This document shows positions 9,401 through 63,763 of a stretch of DNA of 64,000 nucleotides, in pieces. Position 1 is the first letter of the stretch. Each line of letters opens with the position of its first letter. The DNA comes from Cyanodermella asteris (taxonomy: Eukaryota > Ascomycota > Lecanoromycetes > Ostropales > Stictidaceae), in contig UYJD01000014.1 of the NCBI GenBank assembly GCA_900618795.1, positions 942,930 through 1,006,929 of the forward strand, in the 5' to 3' direction. The position numbers were made by a program, and so were the translations under genes. Under the pieces are notes generated by a model. It was not told the origin of the DNA. It searched no databases and saw only the letters and a list, made by a program, of their open reading frames with translations.

Positions 9401-10043
9401 GTGCAGCGCAGCGCGGCCGAGCGGAACAAATGGTACAGAGCGAGCACCAGTCTTCAACTGAGTCAGCGGAGATTCCTTTTCCATCAGATCCAGGGACCTC
9501 AGGTTCTGATGACAACATTCACACATCGACAGGATCCGGGGCGACTTCCAGTCATTCACGGTCAGAACAAGGCAGTCCAAGGAAAAAACCGCTGTCGATC
9601 AGTGAGAAGCGGAGAATGGAGGATGTCAAAACCGAAGAACAAAGAGAGGCCTTGTTCCACGAAGCTTGCAACTGGAAGGAAGCGGTCGACGAGATGCGGC
9701 GCAAAGCAAGTGACCCCAGAAATGGAGACGACCATGTCTTTGAATTCCAATTCGAGTGGAAGATCGATTTGGTGCAACTAGCCCAGAAGATGCCAGAATG
9801 GCCGAAGTATGTGAAGCCATACAAGGTGAAGGTGACGGAAGAACAGTACTACAAGGTAATAGGAGAATGCTATCTGGACGACATGATGAACGGTGAAGCA
9901 TTGCAAGCAAGGCAGTAAGTCCGTCCCAAATATCTGCATACTCTTCCCATTATTCACCTCCCCTTCCCACCCCACGACTACTGAGACTAACCTCTCCCAG
10001 TGGAAGCGAGCAATGCAAGGACAGGAAATTCGAGCTTCGTTAA
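6435..10043 (+). CDS. Large heterokaryon-incompatibility (HET) domain protein
   Basis: Four exons are inferred: 6435-7053, 7100-7926, 8023-9914 and 10001-10043, giving 1126 residues in a continuous frame. The HET domain is at the N-terminus: FEALSWVWGNE, then LWVDAICINQANLDER, and RRWVIQEIALAP created by the first splice. HET proteins mediate allorecognition and programmed cell death in fungi. After the domain comes an acidic linker (DDESEDEYESS), a Ser/Pro-rich region, a second folded region of unknown family, a long low-complexity Ser/Gln/Glu-rich stretch and a Lys/Glu-rich end. The last intron (9915-10000) has a GTAAGT donor, ACTAAC branch and CCCAG acceptor; without it the protein would stop at 9918. 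ATG 6435 (MALQEILKREPERYKYTPLP) puts the family's YTPL start near the N-terminus; an upstream in-frame ATG exists at 6315. Confidence 0.85.
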
Positions 10044-18740: not shown

Positions 18741-19032
18741 TTTTGTCCAGAGTAGAGGAGACTCAATCTCATGACCGACATTGCCCAGCTCGACGGTTGA
18801 GATCGAAATGGGTTTGCATTCCGAATCTGGCGTCAGAGGGTTCTGAAGGTGCTTCACGCTGTGAGTTCGGCAATGCGGAGCTCAACCTCGGCACGTCATC
18901 CGGGAGCTCACATCTCCACATTCAACCTCCCATTGCATGGCAATTGTCCTGCGTAAAGGTGCCTATGAACATACGGTCTTCAGCATTTCGTGCACAACAA
19001 ACGCTGGGAACTTAATTAATCAAAAGGTCATC
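18741..19032. promoter_or_regulatory. Shared divergent promoter of the two carboxylase subunit genes
   Basis: The start codons of the beta and alpha genes lie 292 bp apart, head to head, so this segment must hold both promoters and would allow coordinated expression of the two subunits. No specific binding site is identified. An open frame upstream of the beta start reaches 18857, but it begins with GTG. Confidence 0.6.
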
Positions 19033-24124: not shown

Positions 24125-24791
24125 CCAGGATTTTCGACCGGTTGCACTCGCAAGTATGGATCATGAATTACGACGCAAAATGTACGATAACGACTCGCAC
24201 CCGCACGAGGTGAAACGGGGTCCTTGAGTCCAAGGGGGAGACTACGAGATCGGCAAAGGCGGCTTGCATGACGGAGCGAAAGGAACATATCATTGTACAA
24301 TATCACATTTCTAATCAAATCGCTCAACCAGCGAAGACAGCCATTTCCAAAGCAGCGTTGCACAAGTTAACTATTCACAGGGTGCTGCAAGCAGGGCAGT
24401 TACTGGGTGGTTCAAGGCTGACTCAGCAAGGATCACGGGCCACATTCGAAGGAGCACGAGCCTCGCTCGCCTTTGCGTGTGAGACCATGATGCCATCAAG
24501 AGCTCATCAGAGCCGCGTCCTTTTCCAAACCATCTAGCAAAGTCGGGCTCAACTGCCACAACTGAACAGACGGTGGATATGAACGGTGAGGTGACGTAAG
24601 ACCCCACCTCATTCCATTCGCAAAGCGCTATGTGAACCGCCTCGACGGGTGGGGCGAAAGCTTAAAGCTCAGAGTATATTCAACAGACATAAGATGGCGA
24701 TGGTGCGCCGACTTTCGTTTTTGAAATAGGTAGATGCAGGCAATAGCGGCCATTCGATATCTTCAGCACCAGCAACTTTGAATATTCCGAC
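24125..24791. other. Intergenic
   Basis: The 3' end of the regulator gene and the promoter of the reductase gene. No other gene is seen. Confidence 0.5.
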
Positions 24792-25964
24792 ATGAGCGGA
24801 CACCATGCCCTCGTCTTCGGCGCCAGCGGGATCCAGGGCTGGGCCATCACCAATCAGATCCTCAAGGAATACCCCAATCCCACCACGTTCTCCCGGGTGA
24901 CGGCGCTCAGCAACAGAAACCTCCCACTGGAGTCGACGCTCTGGCCACAGACCGGGAAACTGCACGTTGTGAACGGAATCGACCTCTTAACAGAAGGTCA
25001 GGATGGCCTGGAAAGACGCATGAAAGAGATTTACGACATTGAGATGGTATCCCACGTCTTCTTCTGCGCCTACGTCCAAGACTCCGACCCAGCCAACGAA
25101 TGCAAGTTGAACGAGGATCTCCTCGTACGCGCCATCACGGCGGTCAGCCGTTTGTCGTCTGCGCTCGAGTTTGTGGTCCTTCCGACTGGGACTAAGACGT
25201 ACGGCGTGCACTTGGTGCAGGACTTTCCTTTCCGAGATCAGCTGCCGCTCAAGGAATCGCATCCTCGAATCCCCGAACCGCATGCTTCCGTCAACTTCTA
25301 CTACCACCAGGCTGATGCACTGAACAAACTGTCCAAGGGGAAATCGTGGACTTGGTGTGAGCTTCGGCCGGATGTCATCGTTGGCTTTGCTCCACGTCAG
25401 AACGTCTTCGGTCTTGCGGAGGAATTTGCCATATATCTCTCAATCTTCGCAGAATTGCATGGCAAAGGTGCGCAATGTCCTTGGCCGGGCGCCCTCGACA
25501 CTTACAATGCAATCTCGAACGATGCCTCACAAGACACAATTGCGCAATTTGCGATATATGCCTCCTTGCGTCCCGACGCTTGTGGAGGTGGCCAGGCATT
25601 CAATGTCGCAGATATCGCGAGACCGGCGGATTGGGCGGAACGTTGGGTCGCAGTGTGTGAGTACTTTGGGCTGGTCGGCATCCCACCAAACCCAATGCCC
25701 GAGCACGGTTGGGCTGAGTTCCATAACCAGCACAAGAGTACTTGGGAGGAGATGGTAAAGAAATATGGGCTTAGAAGCAATGGCATGATTGGTGGCCCAA
25801 CCTCGGCGATGGCTGCAAACATGATGCAGTTCATGGACTTTGACCGGACTGTTGACATAACAAAAATGTTGGCGACTGGTTATCGACCACCCGAACGTCC
25901 GGACACAGAGACAGCCTGGATCACCGCCTTCGACCGCTTCCGGCAGGCAAAGATCATCCCGTAG
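24792..25964 (+). CDS. PRISE-type NAD(P)-dependent reductase (progesterone 5-beta-reductase/iridoid synthase-like SDR)
   Basis: A single-exon protein of 390 residues starting at ATG 24792. The N-terminal Rossmann motif HALVFGASGIQGWAI is followed by an SDR arrangement like that of the fungal PRISE group: VSHVFFCAYVQ, LPTGTKTYGVH, FYYHQADAL and WCELRPDVIVGFAP. The Tyr in FYYHQ is the catalytic tyrosine of this group, which reduces activated carbon-carbon double bonds with NADPH. Later parts (GQAFNVADIARPADW, MPEHGWAEFHNQHKSTWEEM) are also typical. Fungal members occur in secondary metabolite clusters, though many are orphan. It ends 67 bp from the end of ku70 on the other strand. The substrate is unknown. 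Confidence 0.88.
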   Translation: MSGHHALVFGASGIQGWAITNQILKEYPNPTTFSRVTALSNRNLPLESTLWPQTGKLHVVNGIDLLTEGQDGLERRMKEIYDIEMVSHVFFCAYVQDSDPANECKLNEDLLVRAITAVSRLSSALEFVVLPTGTKTYGVHLVQDFPFRDQLPLKESHPRIPEPHASVNFYYHQADALNKLSKGKSWTWCELRPDVIVGFAPRQNVFGLAEEFAIYLSIFAELHGKGAQCPWPGALDTYNAISNDASQDTIAQFAIYASLRPDACGGGQAFNVADIARPADWAERWVAVCEYFGLVGIPPNPMPEHGWAEFHNQHKSTWEEMVKKYGLRSNGMIGGPTSAMAANMMQFMDFDRTVDITKMLATGYRPPERPDTETAWITAFDRFRQAKIIP

Positions 25965-26031: not shown

Positions 26032-28011
26032 TCATTTCCTCTCGAAATATTGCTCCACTCTTGCGACGAGTTCCGCTTTCTTTCCCGAGCCCCTTATTCC
26101 TTTCTGTTCGAGCCAGTCCTTGAGATCTGCGACTTTGAGCTTGTCAAGTCTGTTGGCCTCGAACGATGAGCGCATTTCTTTATCTGACAGCGCACCAGTT
26201 GATCCAGTCTTCACTTTCTTGGGCCCTTCTTCGCCGCCGATTCGGACGTTGCCGGCGACTGCTCGCTTCGCACCCGGTGCACTAAGGGCACCAGCCACAT
26301 CGCGATTCTCATCCTGCCACTTTCGATGATGCTTGTCGAGCTCTCCGCCCCAGTCTTGCACATAAGCGCCAGCGCGCTTGTCGATTTGTCTGTACTTGGG
26401 CACCGTCTTGTCTTCCGGCTGAACGGGAATATCTTCATCCAAAGCCATGGCTTGCAAGATCTTGTAATGCCACTGTAGAGCCGGATTGGGATACCTCTCG
26501 GGAGCATACCTTGCTTTTGGAAGCTGAAGCTGTCCGATGATCTCTCGCATTTTGTCAATCACAGGGTCCGGCGCGACGATATTCATGGTCTCGGGATCTT
26601 TTCGAATGTCATCTGCAAACGGTAACGGCACAATCCACATGCCAGGAGGCATAGTTTGATCTCCGTCCTCGTTAAGCTGTTCTTCGCCAGGTAGGATCGC
26701 TGCCATGACTGGGGCGGCATTCTTCCTCGCAATGAACCATGCAAGTGCCATTTTCTTGCTCTTGAGCAATTTCAGCTGCAGTGCGGAGAAGACTCGTGTC
26801 GATCCGACAAACCCTTCTTCTGACGGATACAAGAACGTGCTCGGCCTGAGATTTGCCCAAAACGGAACTTGGTCCATTGACTTGAATCCAATTATGCGAA
26901 TGACGGGGTCGCCAAAGTTCCTGAGTCCAGAGATCTCATCGGGCGTGAAGGTGATCTGGGCTCCGCCAAATTTGTACGCTTTCCGTATTTCCATCTTCTC
27001 AACTGGCCTGCCCGAGTCCGATTCGTGCCGAGTGCTCTGACTGAGGACAATCTCGGCTTTCTCGCCTTTGAGCCAGATGTAGGACTTTCGCGCTGGCTCC
27101 TGCTTTTTGAATATGATGTAACCTTTGACAGATATTTGCAGCCCAGGTCCAATCTCTAAGGGTAGGTTCGAGAACAAGGCTCGTTTGGGCACTGATCGGG
27201 ACTTGATGGACGATAGCAAAGACTGGAGTAAAGGTATCCCCTCTTCTACTGAGGTCACGCGTGCGTCCCTGTCGACCGGTAAAGGAGCTTCAGGATCCGA
27301 AGGTATGTTGCTGTACAGTATGTTGTTGTAGAATTTGCTCTTGTCGAAGGTGTGCGCGTGTTTCGAAATCGGGAACAGTTCAATCGTCACACCCAAGTCG
27401 TACAGATCCCTAGCCCGAACAGCAGCAGAGTCGCGCAAGGACTTGTCCGATTGATGGGGGTTGTCATCATCGGTGACAACGAACAGCCGTCTGGAGGCAA
27501 AATTCGGTGCTTGAGTAGTGAATATCCGGTTGGCACTGAAAAGCACATTTGCTAATGGAACCCTCTCTGCCGATGGTTTGACCACACGAGCGTACTCCTG
27601 TGGATCCGTAACAAGGTCTCGCAAAGTTCTCACCTCATCCGCCGATGGAACGCACAAGTCAATCAGCAGGTACGAATTTGGATGTTCGACCTCACCTCGC
27701 GTTGCCTCGTCATCCTGGAACTTGGTCTCCTCGGTGCCGTAGAGCAGTACGCCGATCATGTCTTTTGGGTTTGAAATAATGCGCTGCTGCATGAGCTCGT
27801 AGGCACACTTCAGCGCCGCGGATGCAGGACTGTCGTCGTTGTCGCGTTTGCGCTTTGAGGAGGTTTCTGGTGCCTGTGGAGGCTTCTCCAGCATAGAGGG
27901 GCTGACTTCGATTGCGAAGATGATGGCATCTTTCTGTGCTTGGTATTGGATGTCATCGACTTCCTCTTCCTCATCGTCAGCACCGGGCCGGCATGAGCGT
28001 TCTTCAGACAT
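26032..28011 (-). CDS. ku70: Ku70, DNA end-binding subunit of non-homologous end joining
   Basis: An intronless 659-residue protein. The vWA-like N-terminal domain (DAIIFAIEVSPSML, MIGVLLYGTEETKF, RLFVVTDDDNPH) is followed by the Ku beta-barrel core (ISVKGYIIFKK, FTPDEISGLRNFGDPVIRII, EGFVGSTRVFSALQLKLL) and the C-terminal arm. The last about 40 residues form a SAP domain (LDKLKVADLKDWLEQKGIRG). Ku70 pairs with Ku80 to ring DNA ends, recruit ligase IV and help protect telomeres. Length and order fit other filamentous fungi. The start is ATG 28011, preceded on the genome by an 860-bp spacer. The acidic N-terminus (ADDEEEEVDD) is usual for the family. Confidence 0.97.
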   Translation of the reverse strand: MSEERSCRPGADDEEEEVDDIQYQAQKDAIIFAIEVSPSMLEKPPQAPETSSKRKRDNDDSPASAALKCAYELMQQRIISNPKDMIGVLLYGTEETKFQDDEATRGEVEHPNSYLLIDLCVPSADEVRTLRDLVTDPQEYARVVKPSAERVPLANVLFSANRIFTTQAPNFASRRLFVVTDDDNPHQSDKSLRDSAAVRARDLYDLGVTIELFPISKHAHTFDKSKFYNNILYSNIPSDPEAPLPVDRDARVTSVEEGIPLLQSLLSSIKSRSVPKRALFSNLPLEIGPGLQISVKGYIIFKKQEPARKSYIWLKGEKAEIVLSQSTRHESDSGRPVEKMEIRKAYKFGGAQITFTPDEISGLRNFGDPVIRIIGFKSMDQVPFWANLRPSTFLYPSEEGFVGSTRVFSALQLKLLKSKKMALAWFIARKNAAPVMAAILPGEEQLNEDGDQTMPPGMWIVPLPFADDIRKDPETMNIVAPDPVIDKMREIIGQLQLPKARYAPERYPNPALQWHYKILQAMALDEDIPVQPEDKTVPKYRQIDKRAGAYVQDWGGELDKHHRKWQDENRDVAGALSAPGAKRAVAGNVRIGGEEGPKKVKTGSTGALSDKEMRSSFEANRLDKLKVADLKDWLEQKGIRGSGKKAELVARVEQYFERK

Positions 28012-28872
28012 TGTGATGAGCTCAGTGAGCTTGTGACACGAGGCTAGCCTGCAAGAGGTCGCAACGCGCAGGGGAGAGCAGTCTCCTTTTCGCGCTGCAA
28101 GACAATATGCTCACGGGACTTGAGGGTGAAAAGAACGAGGGTGATGCTTCACGTCAATTGCAGATCAATTTCGTACATTCAGAAGCGCGGGCGTGTCTCA
28201 TGCAATCACGCCTCTCACGCAGGCCGCCACAAGGCAGAAGCGCACGGTCCATCTCGCCAACTCACGTGACTCGCTGCTTGCCTGCTTCTTCGAGAATACC
28301 ATTTCGATCTCAGTAAATATGTAAGTTGTCGGTTGGAACTTCAGAAGTAGTCTCACCCATACGTGCGCCGCCTCTGCCAAACGACCTCATTGCGACATGA
28401 CCACAAACGCAAGTATTCTTGGACATGTGACAATGCGTCAAAAAGGCCATCCCAGTGGCCCGTGCATCGATGATCCCAGTCGGCGGATCCACCAGAAATC
28501 TATGCAGCGGACAACCCGGACACGAACACGAAAACATGGTCGATGCATTGCCATTCGCCCTAGAGCAACGCTGCGGGTGCGCTGAGCGCTGGCATTGGTT
28601 TCTGAGCACAAGTAATCAACTGCAAGCCCATGACACAGCGGGAGGTGAGAACGAGCTCGTGTCGATTCTGATATCTTATTTTAAAGCCAAGGGGTCAAAA
28701 TCGGCGCGAATTTTGCTTGTGGAACCCCAAACAAGCCTGCCACCTCGTGTTAGGAAATTAGCTTGGGGATAGGCCCGATCTTGGCTACAGGGTCGCTTCT
28801 GTATAAAACATCATTGTCTGTTGTTTTATTCGTGTCTTGTCTGCGTCACGTCTCCAGACTCAAGTCCTCATC
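28012..28872. other. Intergenic, divergent promoters of ku70 and the secreted protein
   Basis: An 860-bp region between two genes transcribed away from each other. No third gene is seen; a TATA element near the right end is listed separately. Confidence 0.5.
28801..28808 (+). promoter_or_regulatory. TATA box of the small secreted protein gene
   Basis: GTATAAAA lies about 70 bp upstream of ATG 28873, the right distance for a TATA box with a short leader. TATA-containing promoters are often tightly regulated and highly inducible. Confidence 0.5.
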
Positions 28873-31910: not shown

Positions 31911-33218
31911 TCACTCCACAACACCCCTAAGATTACTCGTTCCCAGCCGATCTGACATGCTCGCAAAGAATTCCTTTTGCGCACCACAGCGCTCGTTGGT
32001 GCAATTCTGGCAACGAAGGCCCATCTGTCTGCTGCAAGCCTCTCCACTTTCGAGGTGAGACTTGGCCAGATCTGCCAGAGCTTGAATGAACACCTTGCTC
32101 CCGTTGAGACTTTCCGCCCTCTTGATACCTGTAGCCCCCATCTCCTGCGCCTCATGAATGACCTCTTGGTCCAACTCAAACAGTGTCTCGATGTGATCGC
32201 TGGTGAACGCAATTGGGACCAGAATCATGTCGTTGTAACCCTTTTTGACGTAATTTGGCACGGTGTCTGACGTCTGCGCCCCAAGCCATGCGCTAGGTCC
32301 AACTTGGCTTTGCCAGCACAGCTTGTAGGGATTCTTCATTCCCAGGCGGTGCATCACAGCGTATACCGTGGCCGCGACCTCTGCCGGATAGCTGTCGCCC
32401 CTGTTGACAACCGACATGGGAAGTGAATGCGCTGAGAACAGTAGCAAGACATTATCTCTCTTTTCAGCGGGATACGTTGCCAGCTGGTCCTCGATGTTCT
32501 GTGCGAATGCCTCCACCAATCCCTTGTGTTGGGGCCATCGATCAATGACACTCCACGTAATCTTGCCGTCCCCGTCTGCACTCTCTTTGCCCTCCAATCG
32601 GTTCCTCCACTTCCACAGCTCGTTCAAACTCGACCCAGTCGTTGAACAGCTGTACTGAGGGTATTGCGTGAATGCCACCGCGCGACCTCCCTTTCCGTTA
32701 CCGAATCCGTCATCCAGCAACTGCTGATACGTCGTTTCTGTCAGTGGCGCCGCATATCGAAATGCAACGTACGGTCGATGCGGCGCCGTCTCCGGACTCA
32801 TCTTGTCCAGCAGCTTGCACATCTCCTCCGCTTGGTGCTCACTCCACTTGCGAATTGGTGACCCGCCACCAATATCGCTGTACTGCTTTTTTATTTTGGG
32901 CGTCCGCCTCTTGCTGATCAGGGGGCCGAGATAGGGCTGTAATCGGCCGAGAGGAATTAGGTCGCCGTCGGCGAAGAGCCGTGAGAGAAAGTCCTCCACC
33001 TCGTCGGTTTTCGAGGGTCCGCCCATGTTAAGCAAAACCATTGCGGTACCTTGCTTGTTGGTAACTGGATGTACGGCTGTAGCGAGACTGCGCGTGAGGG
33101 TTTCGGGCCTTGTTCGCCATGGTTGGGATTTGTAGAGTGGTGTGGGCACACTGCCGACTGGGCGGAGAAGGGAAGAGGAGGATTTCGCAGCGCTGGTGAT
33201 AGGATTGCGCAACGCCAT
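31911..33218 (-). CDS. hem15: Ferrochelatase, mitochondrial
   Basis: An intronless 435-residue protein that inserts Fe2+ into protoporphyrin IX, the last step of haem synthesis at the inner mitochondrial membrane. The first about 50 residues are Ser/Arg-rich and lack acids, a good mitochondrial presequence. The core begins GTAMVLLNMGGPSKTDEVEDF. Further landmarks are YSDIGGGSPI, FTQYPQYSCSTTGSSLNE, LFSAHSLPMSVVNRGD with the catalytic His264, and FTSDHIETLFELD. The four cysteines of the [2Fe-2S] cluster are present at Cys191, Cys403, Cys406 and Cys411, in the spacing of the animal and fungal enzymes. The start at ATG 33218 fits the family length. Confidence 0.97.
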   Translation of the reverse strand: MALRNPITSAAKSSSSLLRPVGSVPTPLYKSQPWRTRPETLTRSLATAVHPVTNKQGTAMVLLNMGGPSKTDEVEDFLSRLFADGDLIPLGRLQPYLGPLISKRRTPKIKKQYSDIGGGSPIRKWSEHQAEEMCKLLDKMSPETAPHRPYVAFRYAAPLTETTYQQLLDDGFGNGKGGRAVAFTQYPQYSCSTTGSSLNELWKWRNRLEGKESADGDGKITWSVIDRWPQHKGLVEAFAQNIEDQLATYPAEKRDNVLLLFSAHSLPMSVVNRGDSYPAEVAATVYAVMHRLGMKNPYKLCWQSQVGPSAWLGAQTSDTVPNYVKKGYNDMILVPIAFTSDHIETLFELDQEVIHEAQEMGATGIKRAESLNGSKVFIQALADLAKSHLESGEACSRQMGLRCQNCTNERCGAQKEFFASMSDRLGTSNLRGVVE

Positions 33219-34114
33219 TGCTGCAGCTGGTGGTAAAGGATCGGGTCTGGATAGGGTCTGGGGATATACGGGGAGGGCAAAATGGGGTGGGTGTCCCGAG
33301 AAGCTTCAAAAGTGTCCGGATGGCTGGCGGCCGAGGATGGCAGATGGCGTGCAGGAACGATGACGTCAGCACACTCAGGTCTTTCTTGCACACGGGAGAT
33401 GCAATTTTCACCGAGTCGTCGCGAATTCACGGACCCAATAACGACATTGAGGAGTGAGGCTGCGCACACGGATAGGAGGATACACTTGTACTCAACTAAG
33501 CTGAGCTGTACTATGATTACGGAGACCCGTAACTTTATTGTCGACCCGCGAGCGTGGATGGAGCCCAGCGTTGCGGTCGGCCTTGCCGCATTGCCCGAAG
33601 AGCCGCGAGATAAGCTCAACCTCTGATCTCTCAAGAACATGCCAAAATTATGTATGGCTATCGCTGTTTCCAGAGTTGGCATGCGGTAGGTTGATAATCC
33701 GGTCTTTGCCGTCATGTCTCGAACCCAAAGCATCGACGGGTCTGCAAAAGCTTATACCTTGCCGTACGGCGTAAGCACGGTAAGAACCAAGAATTTTGGG
33801 TAGAAATGGAAAGACTGATCTTGCCACGCAATATGTACATCGTGAGAACGCTCATCAGCCTGTCAATCGCTTCGGTGTATCCGTTGCTTGTACTTCCAAC
33901 ATAATCGATCACGGCGTTCTCTATTCTATTTCTGACTGTATGCCTGGGCTCGACCAGCTATTATTTCTGAGACCTCTTGTCGACTTACCAGAAAGTTAAA
34001 GCGATTGGCCTCCCAATCGTGCTTACACCTGTTCATCCGCAAACATCACTATGAATAATCGTCTTGGTTCCCTTTTGACCATTCTTCTAACGCTACCTCC
34101 CGGCTTGGCTGAGT
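33219..34114. other. Intergenic
   Basis: The promoter side of ferrochelatase and the 5' flank of a P450 relic. No gene is seen; the missing N-terminus of the P450 may have been in the right part. Confidence 0.45.
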
Positions 34115-35566
34115 TTGCGCCTTGAAATGTGCACATATGGAAGTGAGCACAGTCTCAAATTCAAACAATGCGAAGTTTTCGGCACCTCATACGTTCTTGT
34201 GGGACCTGGCTACATGGAAGTTTGGACCGCCGATCCGGAAATGATTACCTCGATCATGAATCGCCCACGGTCTTTCCCCCAGTCGTGGCCGAGCATCCGA
34301 GTGCTGTCGATTTTTGGGACCGAATACCGTATCAAGTAACGGAGACGACTGGTCGAGGAAGCGCAAGGTCATTGCACCGATCGTCAATGACAAGATCAGA
34401 CAGTCCGTATGGGATGAAAGCCGAGAACAGGCCGACGAAATGACGAGGTACTTCCTGGCACAGCTCAAGGGAACGAAGTCTGGCGCTGATCAAAGCATCA
34501 AAGTCCTCCGTCAGGTTGCAATCAATGTCCTCGGCGCAGCCGGATATGACCAGCACCAGAAGTAGTCGTTGGACTCGCTGGAGCAGATTCCTGAGGGGCA
34601 CCAGATGAGCTACATTGGCTCTTTGCTGCAAGTGCTCAGGTTCCTGCCCGTTGCTGCGTTTATTCCTGGCTGGGTCCTGACTTTGCCATTCATGCCCGAG
34701 GGAGTCCAGAAGACGAAGACCGCAATGGACGAGTCCGAGGCGCATGCGAAGGAATTAGTGGCCAACGAGCGGGCATCGGGAAGGGACGCGCAGGATAGGA
34801 CACTACTGAGCATCACCGTGAAGACGTCTGATTTGGGCAAGATGAAAGCAGGAGAGGGGAAGTCGGAGGTCTACCTCACTGAGCATGAGATCCAAGGGAA
34901 CATGTTGCTTTTCACCGCGACGGGGCTCGACACGACGGCAATGCTATGGCATACGCCATCGGGCTCATAGCGCTCAGCGACGAACTGCAGGACTGGCTTA
35001 TCGAGGAGATTGACGAAGTCATGCCGCCAGGCCACGAGGTCTCCTACCAAGCCGCATTCCCAAAACTCAAGCGTATGGTTGCGGTCATGTTCGAGACGCT
35101 ACGTGTCTACACACTGGTAGCGCATTCAACGAGGGTTGTTCATGGTCCTTAGATGGTCACATCATCTGATGGGAATACTTATCCGCTGCCCGATGGCCTC
35201 GACATGTTCATCAGCCCCGGGTTGGCCCACAAGGATCCCAAGCACTGTGGAAAGGATGTGCAAGACTTCAAGCCGCAGCGATGGTTCGACAAGGACGGAA
35301 CATTTGTGCAGCGAGAAGGTCGGGTCTTTGCGTCGTGGAGTTCCGGTCCGAGAGTGTCTCCTGGAGCGAAGATGGCGCAGCTAGAGTTCGTCTCCGCGAT
35401 GGTGAATATCCTGAGGCAAGCTAAGGTGCGGCCTGTTGTTTTTCCAGGGGAGAGCATGGCAGATGCGAAGACATGGATCGCAGGTGTGATCGAGGACAGC
35501 CAACCTCTAACCACGCTTGAAATGAAAAGACCAGGGGATTTGAAACTGGAGTGGACGAGAAGATAA
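34115..35566 (+). pseudogene. Cytochrome P450 relic
   Basis: Fragments in order match a fungal P450: VGPGYMEVWTADPEMITSIM, then after a one-base shift near 34315 GPNTVSSNGDDWSRKRKVIA, an in-frame TAG near 34563, IPEGHQMSYIGSLLQV, the I-helix TATGLDTTAM, another shift near 34945, MAYAIGLIALSDELQDWLIE, FETLRVYT, another in-frame TAG near 35150 and the haem region SSGPRVSPGAKMAQLEF. In that last motif the position of the invariant haem-binding Cys is Ser. The N-terminal anchor is not found. With two shifts, two stops and loss of the cysteine this copy is dead. It lies just before a dead Zn2Cys6 regulator, so two neighbouring genes decayed together. Confidence 0.85.
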
Positions 35567-35661: not shown

Positions 35662-37337
35662 ATGTCGGCTCAACAAGCCTTGTACGCTCGAGCCTGCAAA
35701 GCGTATCGTGAGAAGAGACGAGGCTGTGACAAGCAGCTGCCCAAATCTAGACTGCGCAAAAGTCGGTCGAGCTTGCGAATACCCTCCAACACTCAGTTCA
35801 CCTGCAGCCTCGGCATCAACACCGCGCTTTCAGCGACCCAAGGCGACATCACGACCGAAAGCGCTTGACTTTCTGGCCAACCCGCCTTTGAACTTTGCGT
35901 CCTCGGTATCGCCCTCTCCGAGTTCTCCCCTAAAGACAACAAGCTCGGCAGCACCATGGTTTCTGGACTCCGCCGCTCCGCGCAACCATCACTTTCCCGG
36001 AGATGGCGCTATTCGATGGGCTGCTTTGGGTCATTCTCCTATTCAGATCACGGCTAACGAAGCGAACGACATTATGAGAAGATATGCGGACACAACTCAC
36101 CAATGGCTTCCTGTCGTATCTATCCAAAAACATGGTTCGTCTGCTCAGTGGACAAAACGGTGCAACTATCGAAGCAGCGAATGTATCAGCCTTGCTCTAC
36201 ACCATGGATCTTCTATCCAATCGGCGAACATCTCGAGGTCAAGACTTGTATGAGAGATCAAAGTGGCACTCCGAGTGTGCGGGCAGAATGCCCAAACTTC
36301 GACAATCTTGCTTGTGGCAGAAGTCCTGCTTGCTTTTTACGAACCTGGACAAGCGTTTTTTCCCGATGCATACCATCGCGCAGCTCATTGTAGCCGCATG
36401 TGTCTCGTACTTGGGCCTCACGACAGAAGAAAGGCGACTCAGCTATTGGGTAAGGCCCATTCTTGGAACAGAGCCGAGGAGCGACGCAGGCTCTGGTGGG
36501 CCGTGCTAACACTGGATCGTTACCTTCATGCTGGCTTTAGGTTTCATCCACTATTTATACCTACGATTCCGCCAAACGAAATCATCCCGGCAAACGAAAA
36601 CATGCGGGATTTTGGTGACATGGCTGTGAATCCGCCTCTTGTGATGAGCATCGAGGGACCTACTCAGGTTTCACCTTATGCACGGGTATGCCAGGCAGCC
36701 TACCTGCTCGGTAAAGTTTGTGAGCATGTCAATGAGAACCCAACCACTAAGGATCCGGATGTTCATTTTCACAACGCGTTCCAGATCTCCGAAGCCACCA
36801 TGTCCCTCCTCACATTGATCGAGCAGGAACGTACTTCGATCGAAGAATCACACAAGCTCTTCACGAGCCGTGCCCTATGCTTCTCGGCCCTCTTACTGCT
36901 CTATGGCGTCCACTCGCGCATCGAAGTGGACGAAGTCGAAGTGTGGGATCGCAACTGAGGCCAGAGACAGGACCTCCAGCAACTTGCACTCGACGGCTAC
37001 AAGACCATCGCACCGCGTGTCGGCGGTCTGGACTCAAGAGATCCATGAGCACATCACACGGGAGGGCGGCAGGATTGAATTGAGTCCACTGATACTCAAT
37101 TGTTTGTACTCGGCTGCTGGGGTGTATGCTTGGTAACTGAGAGAGACATGGGATGAGATATACTACATGAATCGGATCGACATACGAAGGACGCTGCGAG
37201 AACTACAGACAATTTGGGCGCTTGCATGTAAGTTCTCAGTCGGGCTCTGCTGGGGATAATGCTAACCGCATACAGCGGATTATCTCTCTTTACTTGAGGG
37301 AACAGAAATGGCTAACAAGAGAGCATTTCCTCGCTGA
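35662..37337 (+). pseudogene. Zn2Cys6 transcription factor relic
   Basis: ATG 35662 opens MSAQQALYARACKAYREKRR and GCDKQLPK, the first half of a zinc cluster in which the second Cys is Tyr; a shift then leads to CAKVGRACEYPPTLSS in another frame. The middle homology region follows in pieces (THQWLPVVSI; ANVSALLYTMDLLSN; VAEVLLAFYEPGQAFFPDAY; AEERRRLWWAVLTLDRYLHA), with at least two more shifts. Stops fall near 36956 and 37135 before the last recognisable segment, LRELQTIWALA, which joins over a plausible intron (37229-37275) to DYLSLLEGTEMANKRA. Loss of the zinc ligand and repeated shifts show a pseudogene. It is 95 bp from the P450 relic, like a regulator and its target in a former cluster. 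Confidence 0.78.
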
Positions 37338-43455: not shown

Positions 43456-44973
43456 TCATACCTTCAATTCGCTGAAAATGAATGGGAAAATGACGACGCA
43501 TGCCTTCCAAAAGATTGCTACTCCGTCAAGTGGCAGAATGGGTAGTCTCCAAATAGGACTGCTCGCGAAGACCATCCATATTGAAACCAGGGCGACAGCG
43601 AAAAAGTGGTAGACGAGTACCAGCGGCTGTCCTATGATTCCGGCAAGCAAGCTCACAGGCTCATCCACGCACTTTCCGCCATACTGAAAGTAGCGGAAAC
43701 ATCCTCGCTGCAATGCGCGCAAGCTGTTGTCGTCTGCCGCAAACAATGAATACAAAGCCATGGCCAAGATATTTATGACAGATGTAAGACCTTTCCTCTG
43801 CCAGTGAAAAGACTTCCAGACCTGGTTCATGCTTTTGTGGTCGCCAAGATCAGGAATGTCTTTCACGAGATCTCTGAATAGAACGACATCATTCAACGCG
43901 ACAGTCATACCACCACCGGTCAATGGATGGCGCATATTCATGGAATCGCCCAACAACACCAGCCCATGCTTCTTCAGGCCCTGAGTCGTCGGTGGGAGCC
44001 AGCTATTCGGCATTGACCGTGGCTTGAAATCCTCCATAGCAGCCTCGAAGGATGGTAAGATGGTCTTTGGCAAATTAGCTTTCACGACGGTCGAGAAATG
44101 ATTCTTGACACCGCCTGCTGCAACTGAAGCTGTCGGGCATCTTTCGGGCACGTCGACCAATATTCTTGTTTCGTGAGTGCCGATTTGGTAGAGCAGGATC
44201 GGGGGCATATCGCCGAGCACAACGTGCCCATGATGTTCGTACGGCAGGTTGCAATCTTTCAGTTCCAGGCCATAAAACTTTGATCGTGCCTTTGGCGTAT
44301 GAGGATGGAGGACTTTGCGGAATACAGAGGCGTATCCATCAGCCGCGATCGTCAAGGGCGCGAAGAAGAAATCTGCCTCGCCATGCGTCGAAGCACTGAC
44401 GCCGAGGACGGTGTCAGGGGTATAGGTGGATTGTATAGGAGCTTCGGCCTTTGTTTCGAAAATAGAAATGTTCGGCTCTCGCATGCAGGCCTTCCGGAGC
44501 GCTGAAATGAATTTCCCGTGGTGAAATGAGCGTCCCTGTGGCCGCAACGATTGGGCGTCCTTTATTTTCGGTTCATCATTGTCGAGGGCGATATTTGTTC
44601 TGGGGCCTGCCAGATTCTCGGGATACGGAATTTGTACGGGCTGGCCATGATAGAAGATCACGTATCCATGCACAGAAATCGCGTCGATGCCCTCCAAGCA
44701 GTCCCGCAATCCCAGCTGTGTCAGCGCCTCAACACCTCCTGGTTGTAGCAGTTCCCCTACAATTCTGTCCGGCTCTTTCATGGATCTCTCGAGTAGAATG
44801 ACGCTGCGCCCTTGGCGGGCCAGCGTCACCGCCAAGGCGCATCCGATTATGCCAGCTCCGACAACAATCACATCGGCGCTGTGATGCTCCTGTCTTAATC
44901 TGAAAGCCTCTTCATGTTGCTGCTGGAGCGAAGGGGGAGGAGAGGGAGGTGGCGTATCGAGTATATAGGGCAT
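43456..44973 (-). CDS. erg1: Squalene epoxidase (squalene monooxygenase)
   Basis: A single-exon protein of 505 residues that converts squalene to 2,3-oxidosqualene in the endoplasmic reticulum, the first oxygen step of ergosterol synthesis and the target of allylamine antifungals. The FAD motif is DVIVVGAGIIGCALAVTLAR (residues 34-53), followed by GELLQPGGVEALTQLGL and GRSFHHGKFISALR. The second FAD motif is LLGDSMNMRHPLTGGGMTVA, and the C-terminus has NILAMALYSLFAADDN, CFRYFQYGGKCVDEPVSLL and hydrophobic membrane helices. ATG 44973 (MPYILDTPPPSP) was taken; the frame is open upstream, but there is no family support for the extra residues. The Pro-rich leader before the FAD domain is usual. 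Confidence 0.94.
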   Translation of the reverse strand: MPYILDTPPPSPPPSLQQQHEEAFRLRQEHHSADVIVVGAGIIGCALAVTLARQGRSVILLERSMKEPDRIVGELLQPGGVEALTQLGLRDCLEGIDAISVHGYVIFYHGQPVQIPYPENLAGPRTNIALDNDEPKIKDAQSLRPQGRSFHHGKFISALRKACMREPNISIFETKAEAPIQSTYTPDTVLGVSASTHGEADFFFAPLTIAADGYASVFRKVLHPHTPKARSKFYGLELKDCNLPYEHHGHVVLGDMPPILLYQIGTHETRILVDVPERCPTASVAAGGVKNHFSTVVKANLPKTILPSFEAAMEDFKPRSMPNSWLPPTTQGLKKHGLVLLGDSMNMRHPLTGGGMTVALNDVVLFRDLVKDIPDLGDHKSMNQVWKSFHWQRKGLTSVINILAMALYSLFAADDNSLRALQRGCFRYFQYGGKCVDEPVSLLAGIIGQPLVLVYHFFAVALVSIWMVFASSPIWRLPILPLDGVAIFWKACVVIFPFIFSELKV

Positions 44974-45512
44974 ATTGTAGGCTGTGGTCAAGAACGACAG
45001 CGCATTGTGTACAACAGACGCAAACTGTTGTCTTTTCGGCAACTTGTAGATTGAAATGAGTCTCGCCACGGTCTCGTGATCCACAGGTACGATACGGCGG
45101 TGGTAGACTGATGGCGTGGATCGCAGACATTCCGGCGTCCAGGAACAAAAGCATTCAGGGTCCAACGTCGGAGCTGAGCGGAGCCGTGTCGCGCCACACG
45201 TGAAACCTGCAGCACGGACCAACGGATAACTCGTAGCATCATCAGGACCAACTCGTTAACCATCGCGTCCTTCATTTATATTAATTACAAGCATGTAAAG
45301 TCGAAGAACCCTTTCCACACGCCAAATCCCCATTACCATCGGTCAGCCTGTCTGCTACAATCGACAGATAAGGATCCAGCGTTATCTCAAACCCCTCCAC
45401 CGACTTCCTCACTGGTCAACGTGGAAACATGGTCAATAGTATACAAATCTGTAACGATGTCAGTTTTGGCAAATTGAAGAAACCACCGAGGGAGGTTAGA
45501 TGCCTACCAAAG
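44974..45512. other. Intergenic
   Basis: Promoter of erg1 and 3' flank of the next gene. No sterol-regulatory site could be assigned with confidence. Confidence 0.5.
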
Positions 45513-56986: not shown

Positions 56987-57686
56987 ATTGTTCGTCAAAA
57001 AAGATGAGGAACAATAGCAAATTCGTAAAATCTAAATCTGGAGATTATTGGTATCTGTATGTGCAGTCAGAACGAAAGTCCAAGTAGACGGACGCGATGC
57101 ATCACAGGCTGTGCAAAGTTCTGCCTGAGACCAGTCCCGGCATTTCTAATCTGCTTCAGCCTTGCCCCCCTCAAAGACATAATTGGACATGATTGGGTGC
57201 AAGACGTGCGAACAAGTGGTATCTAGTGGAGGATCGACAGGCAATGCTGGCTGATGGTTGATGGCAAGGCAGAACAATTCCTCACGTAAACCCGCAAAAG
57301 CCATGGGAAACTCCTCCCTCGCGGGACGGGCTCGAAATCTCAGGGTCAAGAGAGCTTGTCATATTTTTTGGACCGCGATGTCCTTCACGGGCTCGAATAT
57401 TGTATGATCAGGATGTGATAAGGGCAAAGATGTAGCTTTGGAGAAACAAAGATGCGTCTGCTCACGTGTTGGAATCTGAAGGAGGGGTCCGCTGATCTGT
57501 CATTGGCCCGTGCGCCGCATCCCAGGTGACTGATATCAGAGTCAGACAGGAGTCGATTCGGCTTGCATGTACGTGTATCTTTCTCTCTAGTTGTTCACAG
57601 ACCTCGACATCATCGAACCCAGACGTTACGACCTGGACATAGACCAAATCATCCGATCGCCAAGTTCTGGAACACCAACATTCAAG
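56987..57686. other. Intergenic, divergent promoters
   Basis: A 700-bp region between the macro-like gene and atg3, transcribed apart. A frame open into atg3 from 57591 lacks an ATG. Nothing else is recognised. Confidence 0.5.
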
Positions 57687-58759
57687 ATGCAGAAGGCACT
57701 CCGCAGCATGGTGGACGCTGCCCGCGAACGCCTTGCCCCCGTCAAAACCACCTCCACCTTCCGCGCCACGGGTCAGATCACGCCAGAAGAGTTTGTCCTA
57801 GCGGGCGACTATCTCGTCTACAAGTTTCCCTCGTGGGCCTGGGCGCCGGCTGCGTCGAAAGCACAGCAAGTCGCCTATCTCCCCGCAGACAAGCAGTACC
57901 TCGTCACGAGGGGTGTTCCGTGCAGGAGACGACTGGATGAAGACTTTGCTGGCGATGCGGGAAAGGGGGAGAACATGGTCGGTGGCGAGGATGGAGACGA
58001 AGAGTGGCTGAACACCGGCGGTACTCCGAAGCGGGCGCACGAGAGGGATGTCAAGGCCTTGGAGGGGAGCCAGGGGGATGTTGAGCAGGGCGGTGAAGAC
58101 GAAGAGGAGATACCGGATATGGAGGACGAGGATGATGATGAGGAAGCTATCATAAGAGATAACTCTGCTGGGGGACCTAATGCGTATGTTGCCCCGCCAA
58201 TATGCATGGAAGAACGCTTTACTAACACGAACACAGGCCGATGCGAACGTACACATTATACATCACCTACTCTACGTATTACTCGACGCCGAGGATGTAC
58301 ATGTCCGGCTACTCATCACCAGGAACGCCTCTCCCGCCAAACCAGATGCTCGACGACATTGTTGGGGACTACAAGGACAAGACCGTCACGTTAGAAGACT
58401 TCCCTTTCTTCGACACGTCGGTGAAGATGGCCTCCGTCCACCCTTGCAAACACGCATCGGTGATGAAGACTTTACTCGATAGAGCAGACGCAGCTATGAA
58501 GATTCGCAAGACGAAGGAGAAGAGGGGCATCAGCACAGGCGACGCTGGCCTCGAGGGCCTTACCGACGACGCACAGAAGCTCAGCCTTGGAGGCCGACAA
58601 GACGCACACGGAGCAAACGATGCCGAACAGTGGGAGGTTCTCGAGCAAGATGACGAAGACGAGGCCGCTATCAGGGTAGACCAGTATATTGTGGTCTTCC
58701 TTAAGTTCATGGCTTCGGTCACACCGGGCATTGAGCATGACCAGACCATTGGCGTTTAG
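57687..58759 (+). CDS. atg3: Autophagy E2-like enzyme Atg3
   Basis: Exons 57687-58183 and 58237-58759 (intron 58184-58236, GTATGT donor, CTAAC branch, ACACAG acceptor) encode 339 residues. Atg3 transfers Atg8 from Atg7 to phosphatidylethanolamine in autophagosome formation. Landmarks are [20 protein letters not shown] near the N-terminus, an acidic flexible region ([19 protein letters not shown]), the post-splice [40 protein letters not shown] with catalytic Cys236, and the C-terminal [20 protein letters not shown]. The family's Trp-containing Atg8-interacting motif may be WEVLEQ around residue 300, as in other fungi. ATG 57687 gives the expected start. All essential parts are present. Confidence 0.96.
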
Positions 58760-59169: not shown

Positions 59170-60470
59170 TCATGTCCTTTTGTAGACACCCATCAACCAA
59201 GCTCCACGAATGACCGCGAGTCCCCATGCCATGCCTAAGGAGTCCCAGACCACATTCAGCTTGCTCCCTTTGATCTCCTTCCAACCCACAGGCACCTCCG
59301 CAACCTCAATGCCCGCCGATTCCGCTAACATTAACATTTCAACGTCGAATATCCACCCTTCGCTATGCATGTATGGAACAATATGCGGCAATGACCCACG
59401 GCTGAAGAGTTTGAACCCACACTGTGTGTCCCCAATCTTCGCCGTCTTTGGTGGGGTCATCAACTTCAAGAAGATATGAAACGACCTCATGAGAAAGTTC
59501 CGCAGCGGACTCCGCTTGACGACCGCTGGCGTATTGACCATGTGTGCCCGACTGCCCACACTCACCGCCGGCAGAGTTCCCGGCGGCGTGGCATCCACGC
59601 TGTCGGCTACGCTTCCGAGTCCTGCCGGTGATAGCTCCAATGCACGACAAGCGTCCAAGACGGGCCCGAGATCGCTGAAGCGCGTAGCGCCATCTGCATC
59701 GGCAAATAGAGCGTAACATCCTCGAACATGCCGTAGGCCGTGTGTCACCGCGCCTCCTTTTCCCCTGTTCTTCTCCAGTGTCACGACGCGTAGATTGGAG
59801 CGCGATGCCGGAGGCAGCTGCTTGCGGGCGAACGTGAGGGCCGTCTCAATCGTCCGGTCTGTCGATCCGTCCGAGACGATCAGGATCTCGTAGCCGCTGG
59901 GCGCTGCTGGATGGTGCTGTGCGCCGGTGACCTCCGTCGTCCCATTTGCCTCTCCACTGGCTTCCTTGCCTTTTGATTTCGCAGACTTGCTTTTCGAGGG
60001 CGTGCGGGCGGCTGGTGTACCTGAGGCGCCGTAGTGTTGTTCCAGATATGCCGCCGCTTCCGTCAGCATAATTCCAAGGCGTTCCTCCTCGTTGTATGCG
60101 GGGACGACCAGCGAGACGAAGATTTCCGCGGGTTCAATGGCGACTGAGGCCTTCCCGCCAGCTTCCTTCGTAGCTTGGTATTTGTCCAGCCAGCATGGTA
60201 GCTGCTGGAATTTGCGCGTCGACCCGTCTTCTGTGATATACGTGCAAGTCTTTTCTGATGAGAACGGCGCTCGAGGTGTAGAGGCGACTATAGTCAATGC
60301 TGTATATGTCTGCGTCTGTCAGTCAATGGATTGCCTGGCATGCACCACAGTCAACGTACAAGCACGAGAAGGGCGACGAGCAATCCCGCCGCAATTCCTC
60401 CCAGAACCGGCAGAGGGGTCTGCGCAATTGTGCGCGCAACAAATTGAACGATATCCATGATTGTTGCCAT
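59170..60470 (-). CDS. alg5: Dolichyl-phosphate beta-glucosyltransferase
   Basis: Exons 60470-60360 and 60309-59170 encode 416 residues. Alg5 makes dolichyl-phosphate glucose for N-glycan assembly at the ER membrane. The first exon gives a membrane anchor (VLGGIAAGLLVALLVL) and the intron (GTACGT donor, ACTGAC branch, CGCAG acceptor) joins it to TYTALTIVASTPRAPFSSEK. The GT2 domain has SLVVPAYNEEERLGIMLTEA, ILIVSDGSTDRTIETAL, EKNRGKGGAVTHGLRHVRG, the DAD metal motif in ALFADADGATRF, FHIFLKLMTPPKTAKIGDTQ and CGFKLFSRG. A Lys/Ser-rich insert of about 45 residues (KSKSAKSKGKEASGE) sits between the first two motifs, longer than usual. Length is otherwise normal. Confidence 0.95.
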
Positions 60471-61369: not shown

Positions 61370-62092
61370 TCACTTCGTTCTAAACTCCTCCAACCGCTTC
61401 CTCTGCCGGCCCTCTCCATCAAAGTTCCCCTCCTCCAACCAGCTCTCCAACTCCGACCTCCTCGCCGGCCACTCCTCATCCGTAATACTGTACCACGCCG
61501 TATCGCGACTCCGTCCCTTGACCACAAAGTGCTTCCTGAAGATCCCCTTGAACACAAACCCGAGCCGCCTCGCCGCACGGTTGCTCGGCGCGTTCAGCGC
61601 ATGACACTTCCACTCGTACCGCCTGTATCCGAGACCCTCGAAAGCATATCTTGCCATCAGGTACATGGCCTCCGTAGCCGCCGGCGTCCGCTGCAACGCC
61701 GGCGAGAACATGATGTTTCCGACCTCGATGCTCGCGTGCACCGGATCGATGCGTAGGTACGAGGCCACGCCTAGAACTTTCTGGCCTTCCGGGGCTGACG
61801 AGTCGGTGTCCCTGTTGGAGAGGATGGCGTAGAAGAGCGGATTCGTACTGGTGGATTTGGTCGTGAGGTTTGATCTGAAGGTGGCGAGGTCGTGGTACGG
61901 GCCGTCCAGCATGTAGTCCCAGAGGTGGGCGTGCTCGTCGCCGCAGACGTGCGGATACAGGGCGTCGGCGTGTTCGGGCCGGAGAGCTACGAGCGTTACG
62001 TAGCGGCCGGCGAGAGGCTTCTCGTTGGAGGGGAGTGGTCGAGGGATTGGATCGACTTCGGGGCCCAGAGGGTTCGGAGGTCGTGAACTCAT
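61370..62092 (-). CDS. GNAT-family acetyltransferase (RimJ/RimL-like)
   Basis: A 240-residue intronless protein from ATG 62092. The start is a Pro-rich leader, then GRYVTLVALRPEHADALYPH, the usual GNAT_3 beginning (VxLRPLxPEDADALY). The fold continues with FYAILSNRDT, GVASYLRIDPVHASIEVGNI, MFSPALQRTPAATEAMYLMA and YRRYEWKCHALNAPSNRAAR, where the last contains the N-x-xS-x-x-A-x-R-LGF element typical of acetyl-CoA binding. The end (WLEEGNFDGEGRQRKRLEEF) is common in fungal homologues. It would acetylate an amine of a protein or small molecule; yeast relatives are uncharacterised. It ends before the KEX2-type repeat gene on the same strand, 535 bp downstream of it, with no evident link. Confidence 0.9.
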   Translation of the reverse strand: MSSRPPNPLGPEVDPIPRPLPSNEKPLAGRYVTLVALRPEHADALYPHVCGDEHAHLWDYMLDGPYHDLATFRSNLTTKSTSTNPLFYAILSNRDTDSSAPEGQKVLGVASYLRIDPVHASIEVGNIMFSPALQRTPAATEAMYLMARYAFEGLGYRRYEWKCHALNAPSNRAARRLGFVFKGIFRKHFVVKGRSRDTAWYSITDEEWPARRSELESWLEEGNFDGEGRQRKRLEEFRTK

Positions 62093-62627: not shown

Positions 62628-63763
62628 TCAGCTCATGCAGAGGGCATTCCTCTTCCCAAGCCCACCAACCTCATTGTTCCTCTTACTCCACTCTTGATAC
62701 GCCTCCACCGTACCCGGAGCCCTCTTCCACTTCTGCAGCGCCTCCACAAGTTCATCGTCCTTCCTGACCAACGCCGGCCTTCGCCCATGATCCTGCAACT
62801 GCTCCAACTTGGCCTCCGCGGCAATCTGCTCAGCAATCTGCTCGTCATCATCGCCGGCCCCATCGCGCTTCACCTCCACGGAAGCCTGCTCGTCCACGGC
62901 CGTCGCAAATTGCTCTTGCTGATCCTCGCTCAGGCCGATCTTGGAGAGGATGGAGGCCAGGAAGGAGTCTTGAGTCGAGCGCTTGCTGACTGCGGCGGCC
63001 TCCGCGGATTGCATGGCGACGAGGCTCTGGGCTTGTTGGATTGCGGGAGCGCCGAGGCCTGCTTTTTCGAGGATGCGGGTGAGGAAGGCGTTCTCGGGAA
63101 GGGCGCGCTTTTCGTCGGCCTTTGAGACTTCGTTTTCTTGGGCTTGCTGGACGACAACGTCTTTGGCCTGAGCCGCCTGGTGGTCACTCAGACCGACCTT
63201 CAGGAGAATGCGGGTAAGAAAATCGCTGCTTTCGATGGAGCGCTTGCCGGCTTTCGCGGCCTCGTTCTCGGTGGCTTGCTGGGCGACGACGTCTTTGGCT
63301 TGGGCGAGTTGGTTGTCGTTGAGGCCGACTTTTTCGAGGATTCGGGTCAGAAAGTCGGTGCTCTGGATTGAGCGTTTGCTGGATTTGGCCTCGTTGACCT
63401 GACTCTCCTGGTGAATCACATCCTTGGCTTGTGCGATTTGAGCGTCGTTGAGGCCGACTTTCTCCAAGATGTTGGTCAGGAAGCTGGCGGGTTTGGTGGA
63501 GCGTTTGTGCACGTGAGCACCAGGGAAGCGGACACCAAATGCTGGGTAACGGCGCTGTAGTGTCGCCTATGAGCTCTTAGCAAGGACATCGTCGCCTGTT
63601 TGAGCGGTCATGCTCATACCTCATCAACGCCCATCGCGCGCTCGGCCTCGATCCTGGCAAGATCTGGGTGTGCCGCATCGGAACCCAGGTCAGAGAATGG
63701 AACTGCACGAGCAGCAGCCTGCTCTGCAGCGAGTGCAACGGCAAGGAACGTAATGTACTTCAT
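62628..63763 (-). CDS. Secreted KEX2-processed repeat protein (peptide precursor)
   Basis: Exons 63763-63620 and 63566-62628 (intron 63567-63619, GTATGA donor, CATAG acceptor) encode 360 residues. The N-terminus MKYITFLAVALAAEQAAARA is a signal peptide, followed by an acidic pro-region of about 50 residues. Nine Lys-Arg pairs follow, the recognition site of the Golgi protease Kex2. The first six bound five tandem repeats of 41, 42, 43, 40 and 36 residues with the shared core FLTRILEKVGL and a Gln/Ala-rich second half (LAQAKDVV). After repeat five comes an acidic spacer and three short KR-bounded ends (APGTVEAYQEWS, NNEVGGLG, NALCMS). This is the layout of fungal KEX2-processed repeat proteins, which include mating pheromones, precursors of cyclic peptides and hyphal surface repellents. 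The long amphipathic cores resemble surface peptides more than the short cyclic ones. Function unproven. Confidence 0.85.
62865..63506 (-). repeat. Five tandem KR-bounded coding repeats
   Basis: Within the peptide precursor: repeats occupy 63500-63378, 63371-63246, 63239-63111, 63104-62985 and 62978-62871, each separated by a six-base Lys-Arg codon pair. Repeats 1-3 are closest; 4 and 5 have diverged and shortened. The conserved part is the first about 28 residues of each. Confidence 0.88.

What the first reader, a model, noticed from the sequence alone, without database searches (positions are those of the whole stretch)
62628..63763. A secreted KEX2-type repeat precursor with unusually long amphipathic peptides
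Seen directly: a signal peptide, nine Lys-Arg pairs and five tandem repeats of 36-43 residues with the core FLTRILEKVGL. Known: fungal KEX2-processed repeat proteins yield pheromones, cyclic peptides (usually under 15 residues) or hyphal repellents (35-50 residues, as in smut Rep1). Inference: these long amphipathic peptides with Gln/Ala-rich tails would act at the cell surface or be secreted, a peptide family I do not recognise.
Basis: partly seen in the sequence, partly recalled or inferred. Interest (0 to 1): 0.8.

Follow-up and report, generated by a model that had tools for sequence, protein, structure and literature searches.

The report
Fungal precursor of five helical peptides
A fungal gene appears to encode a secreted protein that is cut at Lys-Arg sites into five related but non-identical helical peptides of about 40 residues; it belongs to a known class of fungal peptide precursors, and what these particular peptides do is unknown.

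Summary
On the minus strand, exon 63763-63620, a 53-nt GT-AG intron and exon 63566-62628 give a 360-residue protein. It has a likely signal peptide, nine Lys-Arg pairs (20,000 shuffles: mean 1.47, maximum 7) and five tandem repeats of 36-43 residues between Lys-Arg pairs; each repeat outscores 2,000 shuffles of itself. [quoted passage not shown] The length is not unusual: KEP motifs run from 3 to 352 residues, and Rep1 and Hum3 of Ustilago have 34-55- and 31-36-residue amphipathic units. 'Long amphipathic' needs correcting: only the first 11 or so residues form an amphipathic helix (p=0.0002); the second helix is not amphipathic (p=0.42). AlphaFold models one repeat as a two-helix hairpin (pLDDT 82). 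The repeats are old and diverged. Best reading: a set of linear, unmodified secreted peptides, probably neither pheromone nor cyclised RiPP. No fungal sequence collection was available, so no orthologue could be sought. New member of a known kind; function open.

The parts
63620..63763 (-). exon 1: ATG, signal peptide (about residues 1-20, ITFLAVALA h-region, ARA|VP cleavage placed by eye with the -3,-1 rule, recalled) and start of pro-region
63567..63619 (-). predicted 53-nt intron, GTATGA...CTCATAG, phase 0
   Evidence: an alternative acceptor ending at 63555 gives a 65-nt intron
62628..63566 (-). exon 2, open to stop TGA at 62630-62628
63501..63554 (-). single-copy peptide YPAFGVRFPGAHVH between RR (residues 53-54) and KR (69-70), with its flanking dibasic sites
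63372..63500 (-). repeat 1, 41 residues + KR
63240..63371 (-). repeat 2, 42 residues + KR, exact core FLTRILEKVGL
63105..63239 (-). repeat 3, 43 residues + KR
62979..63104 (-). repeat 4, 40 residues + KR, more diverged
62865..62978 (-). repeat 5, 36 residues + KR, most diverged
62721..62864 (-). acidic segment without a match to the repeat profile, ending in DDELVEALQKW-KR
62631..62720 (-). three short C-terminal pieces: APGTVEAYQEWS-KR, NNEVGGLG-KR, NALCMS

Best explanation
The gene encodes a KEX2-processed repeat protein (KEP), probably of a filamentous ascomycete. The protein enters the secretory pathway through its signal peptide, Kex2 cuts after the Lys-Arg pairs in the Golgi, Kex1 trims the basic residues, and five linear, unmodified peptides of 36-43 residues are exported with a few short spacer peptides. 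Each peptide is a short amphipathic helix, a Gly-Leu turn and a longer polar Gln/Ala-rich helix. The most likely mode of action is extracellular: the amphipathic helix docks on a hydrophobic interface (hyphal wall, air-water boundary, a partner peptide or a foreign membrane) while the polar helix stays in solvent. Shown by computation: reading frame, repeats, dibasic spacing, constraint between repeats. Predicted: signal peptide, intron, helical hairpin. Inferred from the class: secretion, cleavage, trimming. Inferred only: interface action. The confidence given is for the processed-precursor reading; the first two rivals are versions of its last step, not alternatives to it.
For: Spliced 360-residue frame with a likely signal peptide and nine KR. 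Repeats far above shuffles and regularly spaced by KR. Repeats fill 56% of the protein and KR/RR cleavage gives 12 fragments, which meets the published outline. pN below pS in the 25-codon core in 10 of 10 repeat pairs. Helix 1 mean moment 0.57, p=0.0002 (the floor of 5,000 shuffles); helix 2 p=0.42. Hairpin model mean pLDDT 82.4. No Cys, Tyr or Trp in any of the five repeats (sequence). No DUF3328 match in the 46 other window ORFs scanned with Pfam. HET, Zn-cluster and Fungal_trans matches nearby suggest a filamentous ascomycete (inference).
Against: No transcript, mass-spectrometry or orthologue evidence. The stricter screen of PMC9769878 is not met: at 70% identity repeats 2 and 3 match only each other, where a fragment must match two others. 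pN and pS are nearly equal for one core pair (repeats 2 and 4: 0.31 and 0.35). The 284-residue model from one sequence is poor (pLDDT 53.7, pTM 0.26), and AlphaFold favours helices in short peptides (general knowledge). Not every KR need be cut. Mature peptides are net acidic (-1 to -6), which does not suggest binding to anionic membranes.
Confidence: 0.75

Rival explanations
1. Hyphal-surface structural peptides that work like Rep1/Hum3 of Ustilago: released peptides assemble on the wall and change wettability or attachment.
For: Similar layout and unit length: Rep1 and Hum3 are described as having 34-55- and 31-36-residue amphipathic repeats with Kex2 sites (PMC4617103, passages). Amphipathic helix 1 across the five repeats.
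Against: Rep1 peptides are described as forming amyloid-like fibrils, whereas these are predicted helical, mostly hydrophilic and acidic. No sequence comparison with Rep1 or Hum3 was run.
Confidence: 0.3
2. Secreted interaction peptides (antimicrobial, host-directed, or membrane-acting in the manner of candidalysin).
For: KEP products include candidalysin, a 31-residue amphipathic peptide (PMC5784256, passages). The repeats are non-identical, as if serving different targets.
Against: Net charge -1 to -6 and a second helix that is not amphipathic, unlike a typical cationic lytic peptide (general knowledge). Neighbours include several housekeeping genes, which is weak evidence either way.
Confidence: 0.25
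3. The chain is not cut into single peptides but acts as a secreted string of helical hairpins; the KR pairs are linkers.
For: Repeats are diverged (36-74% identity to repeat 2) with pN below pS, as in a repeat domain; no experimental cleavage.
Against: 9 KR against 1.47 expected by shuffling, at regular places although the residues before them vary (note that I delimited the units by KR). The multi-repeat model shows no packed domain (pTM 0.26; single sequence, so weak).
Confidence: 0.15
4. Alpha-pheromone precursor or ustiloxin/dikaritin-type cyclised RiPP precursor.
For: Both use the same precursor layout. Of the 7 non-repeat pieces, 5 begin with XA or XP (VP, YP, PA, AP, NA), as a Ste13 site would; whether this exceeds chance was not tested, and the VP piece follows the signal peptide.
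Against: 0 of 5 repeats begin with XA or XP; no Tyr in any repeat; no DUF3328 match in the 46 other ORFs scanned. But 18 of the ORFs listed were not scanned, exons under 110 codons were not listed, and only 237 bases upstream of the ATG lie in the window.
Confidence: 0.04

Closest known systems
KEX2-processed repeat proteins (KEPs; PMC6339444, PMC7329392)
   Same: Signal peptide, at least three similar units, dibasic sites between them, repeats packed in one region
   Different: Repeats more diverged than the 'identical or nearly identical' motifs of the definition; unit length in the 25-50 class, not the commonest one in Dikarya
Ustilago Rep1 and Hum3 (PMC4617103, passages)
   Same: Precursors with Kex2 sites and amphipathic imperfect repeats of 34-55 and 31-36 residues
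   Different: Those are basidiomycete proteins; Rep1 peptides are described as amyloid-like, these are predicted helical; Hum3 also has a hydrophobin domain, no match for which appeared here at E <= 1; no sequence comparison run
Candidalysin precursor Ece1 (PMC5784256, passages)
   Same: Signal peptide, seven KR in 271 residues, product matured by Kex2 and Kex1
   Different: Our mature peptides are 36-43 residues and acidic against one 31-residue toxin; homology not tested
KEP type G-7 (#12) of PMC7329392 with weak SAP/HeH/Ish1 labels
   Same: Labels of short helical motifs (their nature recalled), 18 ascomycete genera, 49 of 50 without DUF3328 within 15 genes
   Different: None of SAP, HeH or Ish1 was reported for our protein (E <= 1) or its repeats (E <= 10); membership could not be tested because the sequences are in a supplement

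Membership tests
KEP | N-terminal signal peptide | tested here: met
   h-region mean hydropathy 2.64, basic residue near the N-terminus, small-x-small motif; this home-made criterion is met by 119 of 5,000 shuffled copies of the protein. SignalP was not available.
KEP | at least four fragments after KR/RR cleavage | tested here: met
   12 fragments after removal of 20 residues; rule
KEP | at least three tandem repeats of 8-100 residues between Kex2 sites | tested here: met
   five units of 36-43 residues; leave-one-out 21.0-72.4 bits against at most 14.7. Rule; its exact repeat scoring, and the FIMO step, were not reproduced
KEP | repeats fill at least 15% of the protein | tested here: met
   50% by the published formula, 56% actual
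KEP | stricter screen of PMC9769878: one fragment at least 70% identical to two others | tested here: not met
   repeats 2 and 3 are 75.6% identical; no other repeat pair exceeds 63.2%; two short pieces match only each other (my BLAST settings may differ from theirs). This is one group's search cut-off, not the class definition
KEP | actual cleavage by Kex2 | not testable with these tools
   needs mass spectrometry
Ascomycete alpha-pheromone precursor | Ste13 XA/XP dipeptides after the Kex2 sites of the repeated peptides | tested here: not met
   0 of 5 repeats; 5 of 7 non-repeat pieces do begin with XA or XP, not tested against chance
Dikaritin/ustiloxin RiPP precursor | conserved Tyr in the core | tested here: not met
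   no Tyr in any of the five repeats (sequences)
Dikaritin/ustiloxin RiPP precursor | DUF3328 genes nearby | tested here: inconclusive
   no match in 46 other window ORFs; 18 listed ORFs not scanned, small exons not listed, one flank outside the window
Rep1/Hum3 repellents | sequence homology; amyloid-like surface-active fibrils | not tested
   no Rep1 or Hum3 sequence was fetched; fibrils need experiment
KEP type G-7 (#12) | reciprocal BLASTP E < 1e-30 over 70% of the length (rule seen) | not testable with these tools
   supplement not readable; the Pfam labels SAP/HeH/Ish1 were not reproduced

The most novel reading that the evidence does not exclude
One precursor releases five non-redundant helical-hairpin peptides, kept distinct and not homogenised, that act as a graded set (different partners or co-assembly) at the fungal surface. 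That would be a KEP-derived peptide class with a defined fold, distinct from pheromones, cyclic toxins and amyloid repellents.
Probability: 0.2. Interest if true: 0.55.

Novelty: new member of a known kind. Interest (0 to 1): 0.3.

Why it matters
[quoted passage not shown] A precursor whose products are long enough to have a predicted fold, and whose repeats are diverged yet constrained in the core, is a convenient test case: five peptides of defined ends, one gene, one knockout.

Tried and rejected
Other candidates in the window: among stop-to-stop ORFs of at least 60 codons, two others carry 4 or more KR: 8014-9915 (4; no Pfam match) and 26035-28110 (5; Ku70). They were not tested for repeats. 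The core pattern FL..IL.K.GL occurs five times in the six frames of the window, all in this gene.

Family searches: six Pfam families at E <= 1 for the protein, all below their gathering scores (best Xre-like HTH 8.9e-05 and SAM_SMF 0.00033). On single repeats only SAM_SMF returns, 1 of 5, E 0.051. I take these as chance. NCBIfam: two matches far below cut-off. PHROGs and PADLOC were not searched. PDB sequences: none at E <= 5 for the protein, one match at E 8.4 for the repeat profile, taken as chance. Foldseek on PDB: 220 matches at E <= 10, none at E <= 0.001, 50 shown; best E 3.8. Most of those shown are estrogen-receptor domains; the closest by TM-score is a helical hairpin of the Mob1-Lats1 complex (5brk_B, TM 0.82 by query, E 4.4). 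No relative can be named.

Relatives: plasmids none (tblastn); viral contigs 106 pattern matches, 0 relatives; bacterial/archaeal genomes 24 pattern matches, 1 locus, L001. L001 is a chance FLTRILEKAGL inside a 315-residue bacterial ORF that looks by eye like a substrate-binding lipoprotein; rejected. The squalene epoxidase ORF was used to look for close fungal contigs among viral contigs: 1 pattern match, 0 relatives. No fungal collection was on hand, so these absences say nothing about fungal orthologues.

A profile comparison with the SAP domain of the window's own Ku70 gave no match (probability 0.4%; single sequence on that side, so weak). A bacterial promoter/terminator scan upstream found 0 and 0, which is uninformative for a fungus.

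Papers: LEKVGL found in 0 papers. The listings, seen as titles and abstract starts, name no such sequence; supplements and most subscription journals were not searched. PMC8329847 was opened for one passage, which was only a reference.

Full report
Gene model. The finding lies on the minus strand at exactly the stated coordinates. ATG at 63763 opens a 144-nt exon; a 53-nt intron (63619-63567, GTATGA...CATAG, phase 0) joins it to an exon open to a TGA at 62630-62628; the product has 360 residues. A 65-nt intron with a downstream acceptor is also open and removes four residues. A search for a signal-peptide exon joined to exon 2 by a GT-AG intron succeeds in the real upstream DNA and in 22 of 2,000 dinucleotide shuffles. 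The criteria were mine and were set with the real exon in view, so the first exon is probable, not proven.

Architecture. There are nine KR pairs against a shuffled mean of 1.47 and maximum of 7 in 20,000. Five consecutive units between KR pairs, of 41, 42, 43, 40 and 36 residues, share eight invariant columns (F7 L8 I11 L12 K14 G16 L17 Q24 of repeat 2). Leave-one-out profile scores are 58.3, 72.4, 64.0, 28.1 and 21.0 bits, against at most 14.7 among 2,000 shuffles of each. Neither the first 70 residues nor the segment after repeat 5 matches the repeat profile. The pro-region ends with a single 14-residue piece between RR and KR. Two short C-terminal pieces (DDELVEALQKW and APGTVEAYQEWS) resemble each other (p 0.0007 for that pair, 0.033 allowing for all pairs of the eight non-repeat pieces).

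Age and constraint. Synonymous differences between repeats are high (core pS 0.35-0.96). pN is below pS in the 25-codon core in 10 of 10 pairs and in the edges in 9 of 10. dN/dS could be computed for 7 of 10 core pairs (0.06-0.83); three were saturated, and one pair (2 and 4) is close to equal (0.31 and 0.35). The comparison is between repeats of one gene with few codons, so it is qualitative: the repeats are old and not recently homogenised, and the core seems constrained. That they are not interchangeable is an inference.

Structure. A model of 284 residues from a single sequence is poor (pLDDT 53.7, pTM 0.26) but helical. Repeat 2 with the other four as alignment gives helices 4-15 and 19-41 with mean pLDDT 82.4 and pTM 0.51; AlphaFold tends to favour helices for short peptides (general knowledge). 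Helix 1 (11 residues) is amphipathic (mean moment 0.57, p=0.0002, the floor of 5,000 shuffles); helix 2 (18 residues) is not (0.16, p=0.42); mature peptides carry net charges of -1, -2, -4, -1 and -6. An 18-residue window test over whole repeats found no excess moment in any of the five (p 0.19-0.97). So 'long amphipathic peptides' is true of about the first third only. Foldseek found no significant relative.

Context. Pfam matches name ordinary fungal genes: a GNAT acetyltransferase (61370-62092), a family-2 glycosyltransferase (59170-60297), an Atg3/Atg10-type protein (57591-58756), squalene epoxidase (43459-45255), ferrochelatase (31914-33305) and Ku70 (26035-28110). Besides the KEP, 46 window ORFs were scanned with Pfam: 45 of the other 63 listed, and the GNAT ORF. 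None matched DUF3328 at E <= 1, 0.01 or 0.05. The 18 others, exons under 110 codons, and the flank beyond 64000 (237 bases from the ATG) are unseen. A HET domain and fungal transcription-factor domains suggest a filamentous ascomycete; the species was not identified.

Comparison with what is known. The class is KEX2-processed repeat proteins. PMC6339444 (first of seven parts, sections 6, 10 and 24, and passages read) gives the pipeline rules, whose outline is met here (SignalP, TMHMM and FIMO steps not reproduced), and motif sizes of 3-352 residues. PMC7329392 (abstract and outline, sections 6 and 13, passages) counts 7,878 KEPs in 838 types plus 2,560 stand-alone ones, so an unfamiliar sequence is common in this class. 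The stricter 70%-identity screen of PMC9769878 (section 14 and passages) is not met. Rep1 and Hum3 (PMC4617103, passages) show that long amphipathic Kex2-type repeats are known. The repeats lack the Ste13 starts of pheromones and the Tyr of dikaritins, though 5 of 7 non-repeat pieces begin with XA or XP and the search for DUF3328 was partial.

Verdict. A new member of a known kind. Processed-precursor reading about 0.75; the biological role remains open, with interface action as the leading but unproven idea.

Noticed in passing
window 62679-62759 (-): Two short C-terminal pieces, DDELVEALQKW-KR and APGTVEAYQEWS-KR, look like a second degenerate repeat pair, the second with an AP (Ste13-like) start; weak support.
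   Followed up: partly
window 63507-63548 (-): A single-copy 14-residue piece YPAFGVRFPGAHVH between RR and KR, unlike the repeats.
   Followed up: no
window 34566-35563 (+): Cytochrome P450 matches split over two ORFs; fungal transcription-factor domains lie at 36254-36955 and 22409-24121 and a PRISE-like Rossmann protein at 24747-25961. The split is probably introns.
   Followed up: no
window 6300-7124 (+): HET (heterokaryon incompatibility) domain ORF, consistent with a filamentous ascomycete.
   Followed up: no
window 17233-21152: Carboxyl transferase ORFs (minus strand) and a biotin carboxylase/biotinyl ORF (plus strand) lie side by side and divergent, perhaps the two subunits of an acyl-CoA carboxylase.
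   Followed up: no
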